Positions 1 through 13,360 of a stretch of 40,758 bases of DNA are shown piece after piece. The notes beneath the pieces are model-generated. The model did not search any database. It saw only the letters and a list, made by a program, of their open reading frames with translations, and had not been told where the DNA came from. Numbering within the stretch: position 1 is the first letter of the stretch; every line of letters begins with the position of its first letter. Source of the DNA: an uncultured Granulosicoccaceae bacterium (lineage in GTDB: Bacteria > Pseudomonadota > Gammaproteobacteria > CALCKW01); the NCBI GenBank assembly GCA_937925815.1, contig CALAMQ010000091.1:1-40758 (forward strand), in the 5' to 3' direction. Both the position numbers and the translations under genes were made by a program.

Positions 1-641
<641 letters not shown>

Positions 642-642
642 G

Positions 643-2814
643 TCAGCGTGCGACGCGGCGCGGCAGTGGCGCCTGACTGCACTGGCCACAGCGCCGGTGG
701 TAGTGCGCGACCACCGCGTGCCGTTCTTGTTCGCGCCGTGCGGTGTTGTTTTCGTCGTCAAGCTCTAGCCGACGACGCAATTCACGCCTGAAGAGGTGGC
801 TCTCTCGGTAGTCGAGCAAGGTGCCTTCATCGCGTGTGTAGGGCGCTGCGCAATCGCGCGAGAACAACGCCACGTGGCCAAAGCTCGGCACCTCGCCGCG
901 CGAGACGCGCGCGCCGAGTTTGTTGTCGTCGAGCAAGCTGCCAAGAACCTCGTTGCAGAAGGTTGCAGCCGAGGTGTCCGGGTCAATAAATCGCGTGATC
1001 AGCTCGCGCTCGCCGTCGCTGTCGAGGCCGTATTCGCTTGCGAGAATGGCGAGGTTTTGAGCCATGTAGCGGTCTGCCGCGTCGAGCGTCTCGTCGACCA
1101 GCGACACCATGCCTTGCATCATTGCTTCGGGCAGGCCGAGTTGGTCGCGGTAGTGGGGGTCGTGCCGGCTCTGCGCAATTTCATCACTGAGCTTTGCAAT
1201 CAACGGCCGCATGATCGGCCCGCGCACACGCTCCGCCCAGTAGACACGGATGCCGCTGTGGCGCCACCAGCCCTCGAGGCTGTCTGGGTCGCGCACGCTT
1301 TCGTTGAAGGTCGTCATGGTGTCGACGAGTTTGGTGATGATGCCGGCCACGGTGTAAGGCGTGCGCGAGTCTGTCGGGCGGATCCGCATGGTGGTGTAGC
1401 GACCGACGTCGTAGGCAGTGCGCACGGTGCGGAATCCCGGAGATTCGAGCGTCTGGTTGGCTTTGAGCGTGCCTTGGTTTGCGTCGCGCGCGTCGGTGAC
1501 TTCGCCAACCATCGCGGCAATCGGCGCGCCGAAGCGCTTGCGCAGCAAACGCAGCGAGTGATAGTAACCGGCCACCGCACTGGAGCCGTCTTCGACCACG
1601 TCGTGCATCATCGCCGCCGCGGCGGTGCTGACATCGAGGTTCTCGCCAAACTCGCGCCAGGCCGCGTTGGCGAGTCCAAAGGCGTGCGAGACCATGGTCA
1701 CGCGTGATTTGCGCCGGCACTTGTCGAGGTGGCGGGTCACTTCGAGCGCCGCAAGGTGCAGGGTGTTGATGTCGTTTGGCCAGGCGGCGGCGTCGAAATA
1801 CTCCATCAGCGGTAAGTTGTTGTGCACTTCGTGCACGGCACGACCACGTCGCCCGACGAGGCGGTGGCGTTTTTGCGGGTCGGTCAGCGTGTCGCGAACC
1901 GCTTGCAAGAGCGTGTTCTCTAGCGGTTCGCACAGCGCGTGGTAGTCCACGCCCGGCAGTGAAAACGCAGACAAGGTGAGTTTGTAATCGATCTCAAGCT
2001 GGGTGCGCTCAGGGAAATCTCCACGCGTGTCAACACCTGCCGCCTGCAGCTCGGCCAGTTTGTCCGGGCACAGGGTTGCAATAATTTGTTCGCCAGCCGC
2101 GCGCGCAGACAGCCGGAGTTTGGACACGGTGATTGCGGCAATGGCGTTGGCGTAGCGCGGCGTGATCGATAACTGATCGGTCGCACCGAGCTTCCAGGCG
2201 TCGAGGAAGTCTGCGTGTTGCTGGCGCAGGTTGCGAACGTGCACCGCCACTTGTCTGCCAAAGTGCGCTTCGATATAGGCGTTATCTACAACGGGCGCGT
2301 CTTCGAGTTCAAGCGTTGCAAGCCGGTCGGGTTTGTCGAGGCAGCTGTGAATCAGGGTTGCGACGACAAGGTTCAAGGTCACGCTTCGGTCGCCACCGCC
2401 GTTGCGGCCAAAGCGGCGGATGCCCTGCATGATGACGCCGCTGAGCACCACGGCGTTGATGCTCGGCTCGAGTTTTGGCAGACGGTTGCTGTTGACGACC
2501 TGATCCCAGCCAGAATCGGTCACCGCGATCTGATCGGGGTGAATGTCGAAGGGATCGATTGGCAGGTTGGGGCGGAAGACGCTGGCGAGGATCTCGCGCC
2601 CGCGCACGGTGGCGAGCGTTGCGCGCGGGATATCTCGCACCCGCACCAAGGTCTCGATTTCAGCGTTCTGCCAGGCTTCGGAAATCGGACCGATCAGCGC
2701 GCGCTCGTTGTCGAGCGTGCTCGCAATCAGCCGGTAGGCTTTGATCAATTTGCCAAGCTTGGTCGGTTCAGCTGCAATAGCGCCGGTCACGGTGTTTCGA
2801 CCAACCCGGCTCAT
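643..2814 (-). CDS. Large protein with a RelA/SpoT-like HD hydrolase domain; otherwise unrecognised
   Basis: A 723-aa soluble protein. Residues 370-500 look like the HD hydrolase domain of RelA/SpoT enzymes: H377 in VSHAFGLA, then AAAAMMHDVVEDG with H404-D405 and E408-D409, then FGAPIAAMVGEVTDAR, then KLVDTM with D498 where SpoT has KLADRL. This gives the full metal-binding set. The lysine- and arginine-rich (p)ppGpp synthetase motifs, TGS and ACT domains are not visible. I do not recognise the first 360 residues or the C-terminal 200. Hydrolysis of a nucleotide or alarmone is an inference from the HD motifs alone. The gene lies 43 bp downstream of the HTH/shikimate-kinase regulator on the same strand, so the two probably form one operon. 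A weak AGGGA ribosome site precedes the ATG. Confidence 0.6.
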   Translation of the reverse strand: MSRVGRNTVTGAIAAEPTKLGKLIKAYRLIASTLDNERALIGPISEAWQNAEIETLVRVRDIPRATLATVRGREILASVFRPNLPIDPFDIHPDQIAVTDSGWDQVVNSNRLPKLEPSINAVVLSGVIMQGIRRFGRNGGGDRSVTLNLVVATLIHSCLDKPDRLATLELEDAPVVDNAYIEAHFGRQVAVHVRNLRQQHADFLDAWKLGATDQLSITPRYANAIAAITVSKLRLSARAAGEQIIATLCPDKLAELQAAGVDTRGDFPERTQLEIDYKLTLSAFSLPGVDYHALCEPLENTLLQAVRDTLTDPQKRHRLVGRRGRAVHEVHNNLPLMEYFDAAAWPNDINTLHLAALEVTRHLDKCRRKSRVTMVSHAFGLANAAWREFGENLDVSTAAAAMMHDVVEDGSSAVAGYYHSLRLLRKRFGAPIAAMVGEVTDARDANQGTLKANQTLESPGFRTVRTAYDVGRYTTMRIRPTDSRTPYTVAGIITKLVDTMTTFNESVRDPDSLEGWWRHSGIRVYWAERVRGPIMRPLIAKLSDEIAQSRHDPHYRDQLGLPEAMMQGMVSLVDETLDAADRYMAQNLAILASEYGLDSDGERELITRFIDPDTSAATFCNEVLGSLLDDNKLGARVSRGEVPSFGHVALFSRDCAAPYTRDEGTLLDYRESHLFRRELRRRLELDDENNTARREQERHAVVAHYHRRCGQCSQAPLPRRVAR

Positions 2815-2857: not shown

Positions 2858-3718
2858 TCACGAATCGCTCGCGTGATCCTCGATGATCCGGCACAAGGTG
2901 CTCGTGGCGGTATCGGACGTGATGGTGCTGGTGTCGATCTGGTAGTCGGCCTGGCTGTAGAAGGTTTCGCGCTCTTGCAACATGAGCTTGAGGTCGTCGA
3001 GCGATTGTTTGTGGCTGTCAAAGGGGCGCATGTCGCCCTGTTGCATCACGCGGTTCATGTGTTGCTCGGGTTGGGCTTGCACCCACACCAAGGTGCAGCG
3101 CTCGCGCAAGAGGTTGTAGGTGGGGGCTTCTGCCACCAAGCTGCCGCCGGTCTCTATCAGGCAACGGTCAGTTTTCTCGATGATGTCGTGGAGCGCGGCT
3201 GATTCCCAGCGGCGGTAGGCGTTCTGGCCACCGAGGTCCATGATCTCGGCAAGCGACATACCGGCTAGTTCTACGATGCGGTCACTGATGCGGATGAACG
3301 GCATCTTGAGCTGGTCAGCCGCCGCACGTCCGATGGTGGACTTGCCTGCACCTCGCAGCCCCAAGAGGGCGAAGCGGTTAGAAGTCTCGCGTCGAGCGGT
3401 GCCAACGACGGTCTGCACGTGTGCGAGCAGCTTGTGTTTTTGGTCGTTGTCCATGCGGTTGATCAGCGCGTGGAGTTCGGCGTCTTCAGGTCCGTGTCGG
3501 TCGAGATCGATCAGATCGAGCAGATTGACGTCGAGCGCGCGCGAAATCTTGTAGAGCATCGCGAAGGACAAGTTGGCCTGGCCGCTTTCGACCTGAGCGA
3601 GGTAGCGCTCTGAAATCTCAGAGTGATTGGACAGGTGCTTGCGCGAGACACCGCGCTGGGCACGCAGCGACCGGACCCGTCGACCAATCTCTGCCAACCA
3701 ATTGTTCATCGCTTCCAT
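2858..3718 (-). CDS. XRE-family regulator with C-terminal shikimate kinase-like domain (BoxR/BzdR type)
   Basis: A 286-aa two-domain protein. Residues 9-70 form an XRE-type helix-turn-helix (IGRRVRSLRAQRGVSRKHLS, then SERYLAQVESGQANLS). Residues 115-280 have a shikimate kinase fold with Walker A GLRGAGKST (120-128), ETGGSL (189-194) and a lid-like QGDMRPF segment. This architecture is that of BoxR and BzdR, repressors whose kinase-like domain senses benzoyl-CoA rather than phosphorylating shikimate. The GLRGAGKST and GDMRP signatures are typical of that group. No benzoyl-CoA pathway genes are in this window, so the effector here may be another acyl-CoA or metabolite. It heads the operon with the HD-domain gene and is divergent from the aminotransferase gene. 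The start may be ATG 3718 or ATG 3709; the latter has GGAAG three bases upstream. Confidence 0.82.
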   Translation of the reverse strand: MEAMNNWLAEIGRRVRSLRAQRGVSRKHLSNHSEISERYLAQVESGQANLSFAMLYKISRALDVNLLDLIDLDRHGPEDAELHALINRMDNDQKHKLLAHVQTVVGTARRETSNRFALLGLRGAGKSTIGRAAADQLKMPFIRISDRIVELAGMSLAEIMDLGGQNAYRRWESAALHDIIEKTDRCLIETGGSLVAEAPTYNLLRERCTLVWVQAQPEQHMNRVMQQGDMRPFDSHKQSLDDLKLMLQERETFYSQADYQIDTSTITSDTATSTLCRIIEDHASDS

Positions 3719-7354: not shown

Positions 7355-7506
7355 GGTGAGTCTGCGGGTGTTGGATGCGCAGAGTGTACCGCGTGCTCCC
7401 TATTGCCGCGTCTGGACCCAGCAGCTGCCCCGGCATGGTGGGCAAAAGGGGAGTAGAATGGGGGATTGCGCCTACCTTGCCCACCAGATTCAAACGACCG
7501 CCCGCC

Positions 7507-8472
7507 ATGATCAAGCAGACTCAAGCAGATAACCTGTTGCCCGACACCGCTGTGGCGGTACAAGACGTTTTTGGTTTCGACAGCGCATTGACTGTGCCGG
7601 CCTACAGTGCTGCCACTGAGCACGTGCCCGCAATCGACCCTGATTACCTTTTTGACCCAACCACAACCCGGGCGATCCTCGCGGGCTTTTCTCACAACCG
7701 TCGTGTGCTGGTGTCAGGCTTGCACGGCACCGGTAAGTCAACTCACATCGAGCAAGTCGCCGCGCGGCTCAATTGGCCCTGCCTGCGCATCAACCTCGAC
7801 AGCCACGTCAGCCGACTGGATTTGATTGGCAAAGACGCCATTGTGTTGCGCGAAGGCGTGCAGGTGACAGAATTTCAGGACGGCATTCTGCCGTGGTCAA
7901 TTCAGAACAACATCGCGCTGGTGTTTGATGAATACGACGCCGGTCGACCGGACGTGATGTTTGTGATTCAGCGCGTTCTCGAGACCGCAGGACGGCTCAC
8001 GCTGCTCGACCAATCGCGTGTGCTTGAACCGCACCCCGGTTTTCGCCTGTTTGCCACGGCCAACACGGTGGGTCTTGGCGACGCAACCGGTCTGTATCAC
8101 GGCACCCAACCTCTCAATCAGGCGCAGCTCGACCGCTGGTCAATCGCGACCACACTCAATTACCTGCCACACGAGCAAGAGTGCGGCATTGTCATGGCCA
8201 AGGCACCATCACTGCACGACGACGAAGGACGAAACATGGTCGACCGCATGGTGAAGCTCGCAGACTTGACCCGCGCGGCCTTTCGCTCTGGTGACCTGTC
8301 AACGGTGATGTCACCGCGCACCGTGATCACGTGGACCGAGAACCTCGCAATTTTCGAAGACGTTTGTGAGGCTTTCCGGTTTACCTTTTTGAATAAATGC
8401 GATCCCTTTGAACGCCCGCTGGTGGCGGAGTTGTATCAACGGGCCTTCGGCGTCGACCTAGACGTCGGTTAA
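7507..8472 (+). CDS. cobS: Aerobic cobaltochelatase subunit CobS (AAA+ ATPase)
   Basis: Starting at ATG 7507 the protein is 321 aa, close to the usual 325-332 of CobS. The upstream in-frame extension to 7375 is unlike the family. Walker A is GLHGTGKST (71-79), Walker [11 protein letters not shown] (137-146). Family blocks include [45 protein letters not shown] (arginine finger region) and [12 protein letters not shown]. CobS forms a hexamer with CobT, and this AAA+/VWA chaperone pair drives ATP-dependent cobalt insertion by CobN into hydrogenobyrinic acid diamide. cobT starts four bases after the stop. No cobN or other cobalamin biosynthesis gene is in the window. A TAGAAT hexamer at 7454-7459 could be the -10 element. 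Confidence 0.93.
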
Positions 8473-8476
8473 GGGC

Positions 8477-10303
8477 ATGGCTGTCCCCCCTCGGTCGCGA
8501 GGCCACAACCGGCGAAAAGCGCAGGCCATGGGCCCGCGCGAAGCGGCGCAATTGGCGCAATCGGGTTGTGTGCGCTCGCTTGCCGACGCTGAAAAGCTGA
8601 GCGTGCACTTTGGCAACAGCGCGCCGTCATTAGACGGCGACACCGCAACTTTGCCCGCGGCTGCCACCGACATGACTCCTGAGAAGCGGCGGTTGTGGCG
8701 CGGGCAGGCGGATTCGGTGGCGTTGGAGAAACGCTACCACGACGCAGCCAAACACCGACGTCTTGCACCGGGAAGCGGGCCGTCCAAGGCGGTGTTTGAT
8801 CGGCTCGAGGCGGTGCGGCTCGAAGCGCGCGGTTGCGCCGAGTACGCGGGTGTTGGAGACAACCTCGACGCGGCGCTGAGCGACCGCTTTCAATACTTGC
8901 TCGACAACCCCGATAGCGGCTACTCGCCGCTCGCCGAAGCACTCGCGCTGCATGCGCGCGAGCAACTCACTGGTCGCGCCACACCGGACGTCGCGAGCGA
9001 CATCCACGCCAAATACCGCACGTGGCTCGACCAACACGTCAAGCTCGACGTCAGTCGGCTTTCGCAGGCCCTCGACGACCAAGAAGCCTTCGCGATGGCG
9101 GTCTCAGACTTGCTCGCCGGGCTCAAGCTTGGGGACGGCGACAGCGAAAACGCCGAGAGTGGCTCAGCGTCAAGCGAACCACCACCGGACAGCGAGGGTG
9201 ACGACACGCCGCCCGAAGACGGTGGAGAGGCCGATGACGACGACGGTGGGGAGGCCGATGACGGCGACTCCGACCCGGACGCCGACAGCGATGACGAGCT
9301 CGCTGACCCCGGTGACGAGGACCAGGATGGCGAGGCGCCCAATGCCCCAGACCGCGCCAGGGCGGACAAAAAGCCCGAGACCTACGCGGTCTACTGCGCT
9401 GATTTTGACGAAGTGGTACCGGCTGAAAAGCTCGCGCACGGTTTTGAACTCGACGAATTGCGTGAACAGCTAGACCGCCTGCTCGGTGATCAGCAAGTTG
9501 CCATCGGTCGAGTGGCCAACCGCTTGCAGCGGCGCTTGCTCGCGCAGCAAGAACACGCGTGGCAGGTTGATTTGGAAGAAGGTGTGCTCAACACCGCGCG
9601 GCTCACGCGTGTGATCACGCGGCCGGAGCGGCCACTTGCGTTCAAGCAGGCCCACGCAGTGCCCTACCGCGACACGGTTGTGACCTTGCTGCTCGACAAC
9701 TCGGGATCGATGCGTGGCCGGCCGATTGCCATGGCGGCATCGTGCGCTGACATACTCGCGCGCACGCTAGAGCGCTGCGGCGTGCGCACCGAGGTGCTCG
9801 GCTTCACCACCCGTGCATGGAAGGGCGGGCAGAGTCGTGAGCGCTGGCAGCAAGAGGGCTCACCGCGCAACCCTGGCCGGCTCAATGACCTGAGACACAT
9901 CATCTACAAATCGGCAGATGCCCCGTGGCGTCGATCACGCCGCAATCTTGGGCTGATGTTGCAAAAAGGTCTGCTCAAAGAAAACATCGACGGTGAAGCG
10001 TTGAACTGGGCGCACAATCGCTTGCTCGCGCGGCCGGAGCGGCGGCGCATCTTGATGATGATTTCAGACGGCGCCCCGATAGATGACAGCACACTGTCGG
10101 TAAACGCTGGCAAATACCTCGACCGCCACTTGCGCGAGGTCATAACCCGAGTGGAGCAACAGTCTCCGGTGGAGCTGGTGGCCATTGGTATTGGCCATGA
10201 CGTGACCCAGTACTACCAGCGCGCGGTTACCATCATCAATGTCGATGAACTCGCCGACGTCATGACCCAGGAACTCGCGTCATTATTTGACGCGCCGGTC
10301 TGA
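8477..10303 (+). CDS. cobT: Aerobic cobaltochelatase subunit CobT (VWA protein)
   Basis: A 608-aa protein with the CobT architecture. An N-terminal helical domain is followed by a very acidic, low-complexity linker (about residues 210-300, runs of D/E/G/S) and a C-terminal von Willebrand A domain. The VWA MIDAS motif DNSGSM is at 407-412. [23 protein letters not shown] and [15 protein letters not shown] are typical CobT blocks. It pairs with CobS, whose gene ends four bases before this start. In the cobaltochelatase the pair works on CobN. The acidic linker produces a long serine-rich open frame on the other strand, which is an artefact. A role as a general MoxR/VWA-like chaperone pair is possible if the genome lacks CobN. 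Confidence 0.93.
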
Positions 10304-10573: not shown

Positions 10574-11182
10574 ATGAGCCAGAACCGCTCCAGTGATGCG
10601 TTTTATATCAAAGCGCTTCTGACCGACAAGACCTTTCAAGCGCGCGAAATACGCCGTGTACTGGTGTTTGCGGTGGTGTATGCGGTGATCACAACGGCGC
10701 TGCTTGGCGTTTTTTACCATTACATGATCGGCGGCCTTGTCGCTGGCGTGTCGCCGTTGTTGTTTGCGGCCGAAGACATGGACAAGCTCGACCAACAACT
10801 GCCGGGCATGGTGGAGACCTTGGCGCGCTGGTTGGTGATCATGTTGGTGCTGAATCTGTCCATGACCGTCGCTGTCGGTGTGTACATCGTGCGCCGGCTC
10901 GGCGGTCCGCTGCTCGCGATCAAGCGCGTTGTGCGTCAGATTGGCGAGGGTGACATGACCACCCGTTTGCGTCGCGGCAGCGATGAGAAATTTGGTGATC
11001 TATTCGACACACTGACCCGCACAGTCGAAACGCTGCACGAGCGAATTGCTTCAGCAAAAGATCACCTCAACGACCTTGAAGCGCAAGATGTCAACGCTTC
11101 AACCCGCGCTTCGATTGAAGCGCTCGCAAACGATTTGCGTCATTTCAAGACGGCCGCCGACGATGGCGCGCCCAAGACCTGA
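10574..11182 (+). CDS. Two-span membrane protein with HAMP domain and no output domain
   Basis: A 202-aa protein with two predicted membrane spans. The first is near residues 29-53 (VLVFAVVYAVITTALLGVFY) and the second near 85-107 (WLVIMLVLNLSMTVAVGVYIV). A HAMP-like segment follows (RRLGGPLLAIKRVVRQIGEGD, about 108-160) and then a short helical tail. The loop between the spans, about 30 residues, would face the periplasm. There is no kinase, cyclase or chemoreceptor signalling domain, so it would need a partner to pass on a signal. Its stop lies three bases before the start of the zinc protease gene, which makes co-transcription nearly certain. A link to export, processing or control of that protease is an inference. 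Confidence 0.75.
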   Translation: MSQNRSSDAFYIKALLTDKTFQAREIRRVLVFAVVYAVITTALLGVFYHYMIGGLVAGVSPLLFAAEDMDKLDQQLPGMVETLARWLVIMLVLNLSMTVAVGVYIVRRLGGPLLAIKRVVRQIGEGDMTTRLRRGSDEKFGDLFDTLTRTVETLHERIASAKDHLNDLEAQDVNASTRASIEALANDLRHFKTAADDGAPKT

Positions 11183-11185
11183 GTC

Positions 11186-13360
11186 ATGTCTGTTTCATTG
11201 CGTCTGCTGAGAATAGGCGCCGCCTGTGTCTTGTGCGTTGTGGCCGCAGGGCAGGCTGTGCTCGCCAATGACCAAATTTACCACCAGGCCAAAGTGCTTG
11301 AAGGTCTCGCCGACTACGACGGCGCGCGCTCGCTCTACTCAGACTTTTTGAGCACACAGGGCGACGAGGACTTTCAACGCCGCGTGCGCGTTAAGTTGCC
11401 GGTGTTGCAAGAGGCGATCAAGATTGGCATCGACGGGGCGTTGCCGCTTTATCTCGACGCGCTCGACGCGCGCGACCAAAGTCGCAACAGCGAAGCGATT
11501 TTGGCCCTGACAGAGATCGGTGAGCGCTTCCCGAGCAGCCACCTCGCCGACGACGCGCTGTACCTTACCGGCTACATCCTGCTTATGGATAAGTTTGATT
11601 TTCGTGCGGCCCGCACGCAAATGATTAGATTGCGTGAGCAGTACCCCGACAGCAGCTATGTTGATTCCTCTCTGTACATTGAAGCAATCGCGCTTGAGCA
11701 GTCTGGTGAGACAGACGCGGCCAGGCGTGCCTTCAAGGCACTGCGCGACCGTCACGCATTGGTCTCTCTCGACAGTGTCAATTTCGTGTTGCCCAAGACC
11801 TCATTGCAGTCGCGTCTGTGGTTTGACCGAGCGGCGAGCCGTTTAGAGCATTTGGATCAACAGTTGCTCGAATCCAGCCGGATTGTGGCCCAGTCGTTTT
11901 TGAACAACGGCAAGTATGAGCGGCGCGTGGTCATTCGTGTGGCCGGCACCAAGCTGCCACTTTTGCTCAACCCCAGCCTTGTCTTTCGAAATACACGCTT
12001 CGTCAACGAATTCAACGAACCAATATCCACGGGACGGTTGCAGGCGTTTGACGGTGTGATCGAAAACCGCCCCGGCTCGTGGGCGCGAGTGGTGTTTGAC
12101 GGAGATGACGTTCAAGGCGTCATCCGCGATGGCAGCCGCCAATTCGATCTAAAGACCGATACCGCGACCGGCACGCTCGTCGAATACAATTCTTTGCTCG
12201 CTGACAGCGACAAAATTGCCACCGGAGAGGGCGCCGCTGACCACGCGCATGCGCCGCTCGCGTCCTCGCGTAAACCCGGGATCACACTCGACAGCGCAGT
12301 ACCGGGTGGTGGTGTGGTGGACCGTGTTGTCAGGATGTCGCTGGTGATTGACAGCCAGTACGACGACTACACTAATGGCCAGGGCCTGTTTGAAGCGATG
12401 ACCGTGACCGCAATTGCAGACGGGCTCTATCGCGATGAGCTCGGGCTTGCGTTGCAGACAGATTCAGTGGTGCTGGTCACGGCCGCTGGCGATGATCCGA
12501 TGAATGTCGGTGATGCGAGCATGGATGAGATCCTTCACAATTTCCGCAACTACAGACGCACAACCGACGCAATTTCGAAAGACTCAAGCTTGGTGTATTT
12601 GCTCTCGGGCAACCGCAGTAACGACAACCAAGTCGGGCTTGCATTTATCAATGTCGCGTGCCGCACAGACGGTTATGACGTCAGCGCCGCGACCCCCTAT
12701 CGCCAAAACTACCTGTTGGCCGCGCACGAGATGGCGCACAATCTTGGCGCAGAGCACGACACTGACACCCAGTGCGCCTCAGACAATTCCAAAATCATGT
12801 CGCCATTTTTCAGCGCCGACACCACACAAGAATTCTCGAGTTGTTCACGCATTGCGATCAGTCAAAATATGCAGGGCAGTTGCCATGCCCCGGCGATTGA
12901 TTTTCAAGCCACGGTCAGTCAAGCGAGTGATTCCCACCTGACCGCGTGGGTGAGCAACAACGACCCGACTCGCCCGGCGAGTGCAGCGCTGCGGGTGTCA
13001 GTGCCAGAAGCAGAACTTGACGCGCTGCCGCCAGGGTGTACACAAGCGGCCGGTGGTGACATCGTGTGTGAGCTCGCAACCCTCGCCGCAGGTGACGTCA
13101 AGTCGATTGAATTTGCGTTGCACTACGATGACAACGCGCCGGCTGAACGCACCGTTGATGTCAACGTCGAACCGCTTTCAGTTGAAGACGCGCTGGTGTT
13201 CAACAACGCCGAGCGCGTGACCCGACAAGCGGGGAGCGCCTACCTCGGCGGTGAAGTGCCAACCGGTGCGCCGAACTCGGGTGGTGGGGCATTTTCACTC
13301 GCCGACGCCGCACTGTTGTTGCTGTTGCCGCGCGGATTGGGGTTGCGACTGCGCAAATGA
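11186..13360 (+). CDS. Secreted adamalysin/reprolysin-like zinc metalloprotease with GlyGly-CTERM-like tail
   Basis: A 724-aa exported protein. The signal peptide covers about residues 1-27 (ending AVLAND). Residues 30-210 look like TPR/Sel1-type helices (DGARSLYSDFL, DDALYLTGYILL). Residues 240-330 resemble an adamalysin propeptide (FDGVIENRPGSWARVVFDGD). The catalytic domain is about 380-565. Its zinc site is HEMAHNLGAEHD (H514, E515, H518, H524), with a Met-turn candidate in SKIMSPFF and an FSSCS block typical of M12B enzymes. A beta-sandwich-like region follows. The last 26 residues run from GGGAFSLADAA through a leucine stretch to a basic end, as in GlyGly-CTERM sorting tails cut by rhombosortase. 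It is the second gene of a pair with the HAMP protein. Substrate is unknown. Confidence 0.85.
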   Translation: MSVSLRLLRIGAACVLCVVAAGQAVLANDQIYHQAKVLEGLADYDGARSLYSDFLSTQGDEDFQRRVRVKLPVLQEAIKIGIDGALPLYLDALDARDQSRNSEAILALTEIGERFPSSHLADDALYLTGYILLMDKFDFRAARTQMIRLREQYPDSSYVDSSLYIEAIALEQSGETDAARRAFKALRDRHALVSLDSVNFVLPKTSLQSRLWFDRAASRLEHLDQQLLESSRIVAQSFLNNGKYERRVVIRVAGTKLPLLLNPSLVFRNTRFVNEFNEPISTGRLQAFDGVIENRPGSWARVVFDGDDVQGVIRDGSRQFDLKTDTATGTLVEYNSLLADSDKIATGEGAADHAHAPLASSRKPGITLDSAVPGGGVVDRVVRMSLVIDSQYDDYTNGQGLFEAMTVTAIADGLYRDELGLALQTDSVVLVTAAGDDPMNVGDASMDEILHNFRNYRRTTDAISKDSSLVYLLSGNRSNDNQVGLAFINVACRTDGYDVSAATPYRQNYLLAAHEMAHNLGAEHDTDTQCASDNSKIMSPFFSADTTQEFSSCSRIAISQNMQGSCHAPAIDFQATVSQASDSHLTAWVSNNDPTRPASAALRVSVPEAELDALPPGCTQAAGGDIVCELATLAAGDVKSIEFALHYDDNAPAERTVDVNVEPLSVEDALVFNNAERVTRQAGSAYLGGEVPTGAPNSGGGAFSLADAALLLLLPRGLGLRLRK

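What the first reader, a model, noticed from the sequence alone, without database searches (positions are those of the whole stretch)
643..2814. 723-aa orphan protein with a SpoT-like HD domain and unknown flanking domains
All metal-site motifs of a RelA/SpoT-type HD hydrolase are present (H377, H404-D405, E408-D409, D498). The (p)ppGpp synthetase, TGS and ACT regions are not visible, and about 560 residues match nothing I recognise. It forms an operon with a BoxR-like sensor regulator. This could be a new type of nucleotide- or alarmone-processing enzyme under metabolite control.
Basis: partly seen in the sequence, partly recalled or inferred. Interest (0 to 1): 0.62.

Follow-up and report, generated by a model that had tools for sequence, protein, structure and literature searches.

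The report
Two-HD relative of SpoT hydrolases
This bacterial gene encodes a previously unnamed relative of the enzymes that break down the starvation signal ppGpp: it carries two copies of the same enzyme fold, one with an intact metal site and one decayed, and the intact copy has lost two contacts that ppGpp breakdown needs, so it probably acts on something else or in a different way.

Summary
The 723-aa gene is real, on the minus strand at 643-2814. It is not an orphan: relatives occur in all 4 genomes of its genus and in 46 of 48 genomes of a second family of the class (4 of these only split or partial at contig ends), and nowhere else sampled. In 46 aligned sequences every metal and catalytic HD residue is invariant. 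Most of the 'unknown' flank is explained: residues ~17-317 form a second, decayed HD domain of RelA/SpoT type (profile-profile P 6e-6; AlphaFold model pLDDT 88, Rel HD structures align there at Z ~10). Residues ~340-587 are the intact HD (MESH1-like, Z 12.6). No synthetase, TGS or ACT. Two residues that SpoT needs to hydrolyse ppGpp (Tyr51, Asn147), present in every canonical homologue sampled, are Met and Ser/Thr in all 46. RelA- and SpoT-type proteins coexist with it. The BoxR-like neighbour is linked only within this genus, and no boxB was found in the genome. Best reading: a pseudo-HD/HD metal phosphohydrolase with an altered pocket, probably regulated through its pseudo-HD. Substrate unknown. 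A new variant of a known kind.

The parts
643..2814 (-). 723-aa pseudo-HD/HD protein (coding region with stop codon)
   Evidence: ORF; Pfam HD_4; homologues in about 50 genomes
1864..2766 (-). residues 17-317: N-terminal pseudo-HD domain of RSH type, metal and catalytic residues lost (His-Asp replaced by Q/R/H + D/x; Glu-Asp replaced mostly by Gly-Lys; last Asp replaced by Leu)
   Evidence: profile-profile match to RSH HD domains P 6.3e-6, score 45.2 against a shuffle maximum of 23.1; VIA-align rows for Rel/RelA HD domains confined to model residues 16-346 at Z 6.5-10.3; column composition
1054..1797 (-). residues 340-587: intact HD domain with following helices, MESH1/SAH-like
   Evidence: Pfam HD_4; hhalign P 2.5e-16 to RSH HD profile; MESH1 3nr1 Z 12.6, 170 residues, 2.3 A
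1588..1695 (-). M374 (replaces catalytic Tyr51 of SpoT), metal His H377, H404-D405, catalytic E408-D409
   Evidence: invariant in 46 of 46
1309..1332 (-). K495, metal D498, T499, T502 (replaces essential Asn147 of SpoT)
   Evidence: K495, D498, T499 invariant; position 502 is Ser in 42, Thr in 4
646..1053 (-). residues 588-723: C-terminal helical extension of unknown relationship
   Evidence: helices at good pLDDT to about residue 709; no HD similarity in profile comparison
2858..3718 (-). BoxR-like regulator (Cro/C1-type HTH + shikimate kinase-like domain), 43 nt upstream, same direction; linked only within this genus
   Evidence: NF006015, SKI and HTH_3; synteny

Best explanation
The protein is a two-domain member of the RelA/SpoT-type HD phosphohydrolase superfamily. 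Its first half (about residues 17-317) is a second HD fold that has lost the metal ligands and catalytic residues (a pseudo-HD). Its second half (about 340-587) is an HD domain with a complete metal site and catalytic Glu-Asp pair, followed by a C-terminal helical extension. SHOWN (by sequence profile and structure model): the architecture; invariance of the metal and catalytic residues; their loss in the first half; absence of a synthetase; conservation as a near-universal gene of two related bacterial families alongside ordinary RelA- and SpoT-type proteins. INFERRED: the intact domain is a Mn2+-type hydrolase that removes phosphate or pyrophosphate from a nucleotide-like substrate; because the Tyr and Asn positions essential for ppGpp hydrolysis in SpoT are fixed as Met and Ser/Thr, the substrate is probably not (p)ppGpp in the usual binding mode; the pseudo-HD, which keeps its own invariant residues (K114, E116, R234, R238), regulates the active domain or binds an effector, as RelA's pseudo-HD and SpoT's pseudo-synthetase do for their partner domains.
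For: Pfam HD_4 E 3.7e-10. Active-half profile against RSH HD profile P 2.5e-16; N-half profile against the same P 6.3e-6, score 45.2 against a maximum of 23.1 in 100 column shuffles, 15.7 when reversed, 11.2 for the C-terminal extension. N-half against the protein's own HD: the best alignment falls in the same register, 24.5 against a maximum of 23.8 in 60 shuffles. AlphaFold model pLDDT 88.2, pTM 0.90. In VIA-align the top 25 entries are all RSH, SAH or related HD proteins (Z 6.5-12.6); MESH1/SAH rows include 340-676 and 345-587, Rel/RelA rows include nine confined to 16-346. All metal and catalytic residues invariant in 46; M374 46/46; Ser/Thr502 46/46; the canonical sample has Tyr 27/27 and Asn 26/26. 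In SpoTAb, substitution of Y51, E82, D83 or N147 abolishes hydrolysis (PMC9974481). Own genome and sister family also carry long RSHs. Homologues in 4/4 and 46/48 genomes.
Against: No biochemical evidence. Foldseek against the PDB gave no match at E <= 0.001 for the whole model; the structural support comes from a second aligner that re-ranks Foldseek candidates, and helical models can give middling Z by chance. The N-half profile score rests mainly on the HD-motif block: one of 100 block shuffles (12-column blocks) reached 46.8, and the 4-sequence genus-only profile scores only 22. A changed Tyr/Asn does not by itself exclude ppGpp, since invariant Tyr487 or Glu505 could substitute. The regulatory role of the pseudo-HD is by analogy.
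Confidence: 0.6

Rival explanations
1. It is simply a further (p)ppGpp hydrolase: the intact HD degrades (p)ppGpp, with other residues standing in for the lost Tyr and Asn, and the pseudo-HD senses (p)ppGpp or another effector.
For: Guanine-stacking Arg (R368), K369, catalytic E408-D409, K495 and the metal residues are invariant, as in SpoT; the best single-domain structural match is MESH1; the genome carries two long RSHs, so (p)ppGpp is presumably made.
Against: Y51 and N147 equivalents, each needed for ppGpp hydrolysis in SpoTAb and universal in the sampled RSH/SAH HD domains, are absent in 46 of 46; the R144 equivalent is Thr. The HD sits on a branch of 4.2 changes per site, apart from both long RSHs and SAHs (midpoint root only).
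Confidence: 0.25
2. The intact-looking HD is a metal-stabilised binding or scaffold domain rather than an enzyme; the whole protein is a ligand-sensing or protein-binding regulator.
For: Pocket positions normally needed for ppGpp turnover are replaced. HD domains used as non-catalytic pockets are known, e.g. the GlyRS beta subunit, where the HD doublet is Ser-Lys and cavity mutations affect aminoacylation (PMC8464048).
Against: The catalytic Glu-Asp pair, not only the metal ligands, is invariant in 46 of 46, whereas the first HD copy in the same protein shows what loss of constraint looks like.
Confidence: 0.1
3. The N-terminal half is an unrelated all-helical scaffold and the resemblance to HD is a common helical arrangement.
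For: Helical models often give middling Z scores (tool note); one of 100 block shuffles matched the real score.
Against: Two lines agree: sequence profiles (P 6.3e-6) and structure rows confined to residues 16-346 for nine Rel/RelA/RelSeq entries, most of them above unrelated folds, which start at Z 6.5. At the position of the HD-doublet Asp, 29 of 46 rows still have Asp.
Confidence: 0.07

Closest known systems
Small alarmone hydrolases / MESH1 (PF13328 HD_4; PDB 3nr1, 5vxa, 6yvc, 7qod)
   Same: Hydrolase type without synthetase; same HD fold (Z 11-12.6, 170-183 residues) and same metal/catalytic residues
   Different: [quoted passage not shown] this one is 723 aa with a second, decayed HD and a C-terminal extension, and lacks their Tyr and Asn
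Long RSHs SpoT and Rel (PDB 7qpr, 7ohg, 6s2t, 1vj7)
   Same: HD with the R-K-S loop spacing to the metal His, HDVVED motif and K-L-x-D motif; N-half aligns with Rel HD
   Different: No synthetase, TGS or ACT/RRM; partner domain is another HD; Y51, R144 and N147 of SpoTAb replaced
RelA (pseudo-HD that regulates a synthetase; PDB 5iqr)
   Same: A decayed HD beside an active catalytic domain; RelA aligns to the N-half at Z 7.9
   Different: In RelA the active partner is a synthetase; here it is an intact HD
GlyRS beta-subunit HD domain (PMC8464048)
   Same: An HD fold that lost its catalytic doublet and works as a conserved pocket
   Different: No active HD partner; part of a tRNA synthetase
BoxR / PRK08154 benzoate regulators (neighbour only)
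   Same: HTH plus shikimate kinase-like domain, NF006015 E 1.9e-96
   Different: No boxB match in this genome; adjacent to the HD gene instead

Membership tests
HD_4 / RSH-type HD superfamily | HD fold with His...His-Asp...Asp metal site | tested here: met
   H377, H404, D405, D498 invariant in 46; Pfam above cut-off; MESH1 Z 12.6
HD_4 / RSH-type HD superfamily | Catalytic Glu-Asp after the HD doublet and guanine-stacking Arg | tested here: met
   E408-D409 and R368 in 46/46
Functional (p)ppGpp hydrolase (SpoT/Rel/SAH) | Tyr (SpoTAb Y51) three residues before the metal His | tested here: not met
   Met in 46/46; Tyr in 27/27 canonical
Functional (p)ppGpp hydrolase (SpoT/Rel/SAH) | Asn (SpoTAb N147) four residues after the metal Asp | tested here: not met
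   Ser 42, Thr 4; Asn in 26/26 canonical
Functional (p)ppGpp hydrolase (SpoT/Rel/SAH) | Mn2+-dependent 3'-pyrophosphate release from (p)ppGpp | not testable with these tools
   needs an enzyme assay
Long RSH (Rel/RelA/SpoT) | RelA_SpoT synthetase or pseudo-synthetase domain, TGS, ACT/RRM | tested here: not met
   no Pfam or NCBIfam match beyond HD_4 and a weak TIGR00691 hit confined to the HD; none of 46 members hits a synthetase, TGS or ACT family
Small alarmone hydrolase | Small single-domain HD protein | tested here: not met
   723 aa with two HD folds
RelA-like pseudo-HD (N-terminal half) | HD fold with metal and catalytic residues lost | tested here: met
   residues 17-317: doublet Q/R/H + D/x, Glu-Asp replaced mostly by Gly-Lys, last Asp replaced by Leu
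BoxR benzoate regulon | Regulator linked to box pathway genes | tested here: not met
   no box genes among the window genes scanned; no boxB (TIGR03225) match in the genome

The most novel reading that the evidence does not exclude
A clade-wide core enzyme made by pairing two RSH-type HD domains, in which the first became a nucleotide-sensing regulatory domain and the second a metal hydrolase for a signal or cofactor nucleotide other than (p)ppGpp; that is, a new class of nucleotide hydrolase with a built-in HD sensor.
Probability: 0.35. Interest if true: 0.7.

Novelty: new variant of a known kind. Interest (0 to 1): 0.52.

Why it matters
Known RSH proteins pair an HD with a synthetase or stand as a lone HD. 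A pseudo-HD paired with an intact HD, kept as a near-universal gene beside ordinary RelA- and SpoT-type proteins in two bacterial families, is an arrangement I did not find described. Because the metal chemistry is fixed while two ppGpp-essential pocket residues are fixed as something else, it offers a direct test of how this fold changes substrate, and perhaps a route to an unrecognised nucleotide signal.

Tried and rejected
AlphaFold with only the 4 genus members gave an unusable model (pLDDT 49); 46 sequences fixed this. Foldseek on the full model gave no PDB match at E <= 0.001; the best viral match (HD protein of a giant virus, E 7e-3) was not pursued. No homologue in plasmids or viral contigs. 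Defence role: no PADLOC match. Constant BoxR partner: rejected outside the genus. Box-pathway regulation: no boxB match in the genome. Conserved neighbourhood in the sister family: none found beyond subgroups. The HD tree only shows this family as one distinct long branch, so it does not say whether it arose from an SAH or a long RSH. Literature: no paper holding both 'Granulosicoccus' and 'ppGpp', and none found on a tandem HD alarmone hydrolase in the searches made; the library lacks most subscription papers.

Full report
OBSERVATION. The reading frame 643-2814 on the minus strand encodes 723 aa from an ATG. The only Pfam family is HD_4, residues 361-449, E 3.7e-10, above its curated cut-off; NCBIfam gives only a weak TIGR00691 (RelA/SpoT) hit confined to 392-453. 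The gene ends 1 nt from a convergent flavodoxin/FMN-reductase-like gene (180-641, plus strand), and the BoxR-like gene (2858-3718) is 43 nt upstream in the same direction.

DISTRIBUTION. One copy occurs in the window's genome. All 4 genomes of the genus carry it (identity 81, 77 and 61%); this genus is the whole of its order in the held set. In a sample of 369 genomes of the class, full-length relatives appear only in one other family, where 46 of 48 genomes in 6 of 6 genera have it at about 40% identity; in three of these the gene is split or partial at contig ends (G375, G376, G400) and in one only about 220 bases are seen (G397). In 398 genomes of the phylum, no others were found. One genus member's public record calls the organism an uncultured Granulosicoccaceae bacterium. 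Plasmids and viral contigs gave nothing. So the gene is a near-universal gene of two related families, not an orphan and not mobile-looking.

ACTIVE HALF. In 46 aligned sequences (A4) all metal and catalytic residues are invariant. The profile of residues 340-560 matches a profile of 27 RSH/SAH HD domains at P 2.5e-16. In the model built from A4 (pLDDT 88.2, pTM 0.90), human MESH1 aligns with Z 12.6 over 170 residues at 2.3 A within model residues 340-676, and P. aeruginosa SAH with Z 11.6 within 345-587.

DECAYED HALF. By eye, residues 118-241 repeat the HD pattern (helix...FG..VATLIHSCLDK....AHFGRQVAVHVRNL..). The test: the profile of residues 1-345 against the RSH HD profile gives P 6.3e-6, score 45.2; 100 column shuffles reach at most 23.1, the reversed profile 15.7, and the C-terminal extension 11.2. 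Shuffling 12-column blocks, which keeps the local motif, gave a mean of 26.7 and one value of 46.8 in 100, so much of the score lies in the motif block. Against the protein's own HD the best alignment is 144-206 to 392-449 in the expected register, score 24.5 against a shuffle maximum of 23.8. In the structure, nine Rel, RelA or RelSeq entries align wholly within model residues 16-346 with Z 6.5-10.3 (T. thermophilus Rel 7ohg: 181 residues, 4.2 A), while unrelated folds start at Z 6.5. At the aligned positions the doublet is Gln/Arg/His followed mostly by Asp, the Glu-Asp pair is mostly Gly-Lys, and the last metal Asp is Leu/Ile. This is a pseudo-HD. It keeps invariant K114, E116, R234 and R238, which suggests a retained pocket (inference).

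POCKET. Anchored on the metal residues, SpoTAb R45, K46, H54, H78, D79, E82, D83, K140 and D143 correspond to R368, K369, H377, H404, D405, E408, D409, K495 and D498, all invariant. But Y51 corresponds to M374 (46/46), R144 to T499 (46/46) and N147 to Ser/Thr502 (42 + 4). In the 27 canonical HD domains collected here Tyr is 27/27 and Asn 26/26 (one sequence loses that region). In SpoTAb, substitution of Y51, E82, D83 or N147 gives a hydrolysis-inactive enzyme, and K140 or R144 to Ala cost five- to tenfold (PMC9974481); in RelSeq, Asn148 contacts the guanine and the 3'-phosphate (PMC13299517). So the metal machinery is kept and part of the ppGpp pocket is not. The HD also forms a single group on a long branch apart from long RSHs and SAHs (rooting is for drawing only).

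CONTEXT. The window's genome also has a SpoT-type protein with an intact HD and a RelA-type protein with a degenerate HD; most genomes of the sister family have two long RSHs. The protein is therefore an addition to a normal stringent-response set. The BoxR-like gene is adjacent in the three genus members where the contig reaches it. In the sister family full-length BoxR-like genes exist in many genomes but were not adjacent to the HD gene, and neighbours of the HD gene differ between subgroups. No boxB match was found in the window's genome.

MECHANISM. Shown: the two-HD architecture (by profile and model), with one intact and one decayed copy; invariance of metal and catalytic residues; changed ppGpp-contact residues; absence of synthetase, TGS and ACT. 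Inferred: Mn2+-type hydrolysis of a nucleotide-like phosphoanhydride or phosphoester; substrate probably not (p)ppGpp in the usual pose; regulation through the pseudo-HD, as RelA uses its pseudo-HD and A. baumannii SpoT its pseudo-synthetase (PMC9974481). The substrate is unknown.

VERDICT. A new variant of a known kind, moderately interesting, with clear bench tests.

Noticed in passing
window 7375-10303 (+): CobS-like and CobT-like genes side by side; no other cobalamin gene was recognised among the window genes scanned.
   Followed up: no
window 11186-13360 (+): 724-aa protein with TPR-like repeats followed by a reprolysin-like (M12B) metalloprotease domain, next to a 202-aa ORF (10574-11182) without any Pfam match.
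   Followed up: no
L031:1384-2256 (G361:C132): A small alarmone hydrolase-like gene whose frame loses the KLAD metal motif and continues in unrelated sequence, possibly a frameshift.
   Followed up: no
G384, G388, G391, G393, G401, G408 (sister family): Some sister-family genomes carry a third, weaker RelA_SpoT synthetase match in a 370-500-aa frame, possibly additional small synthetases.
   Followed up: no
window 2858-3718 (-): BoxR-like regulator (NF006015) in a genome with no boxB match; its ligand and targets are unclear.
   Followed up: partly
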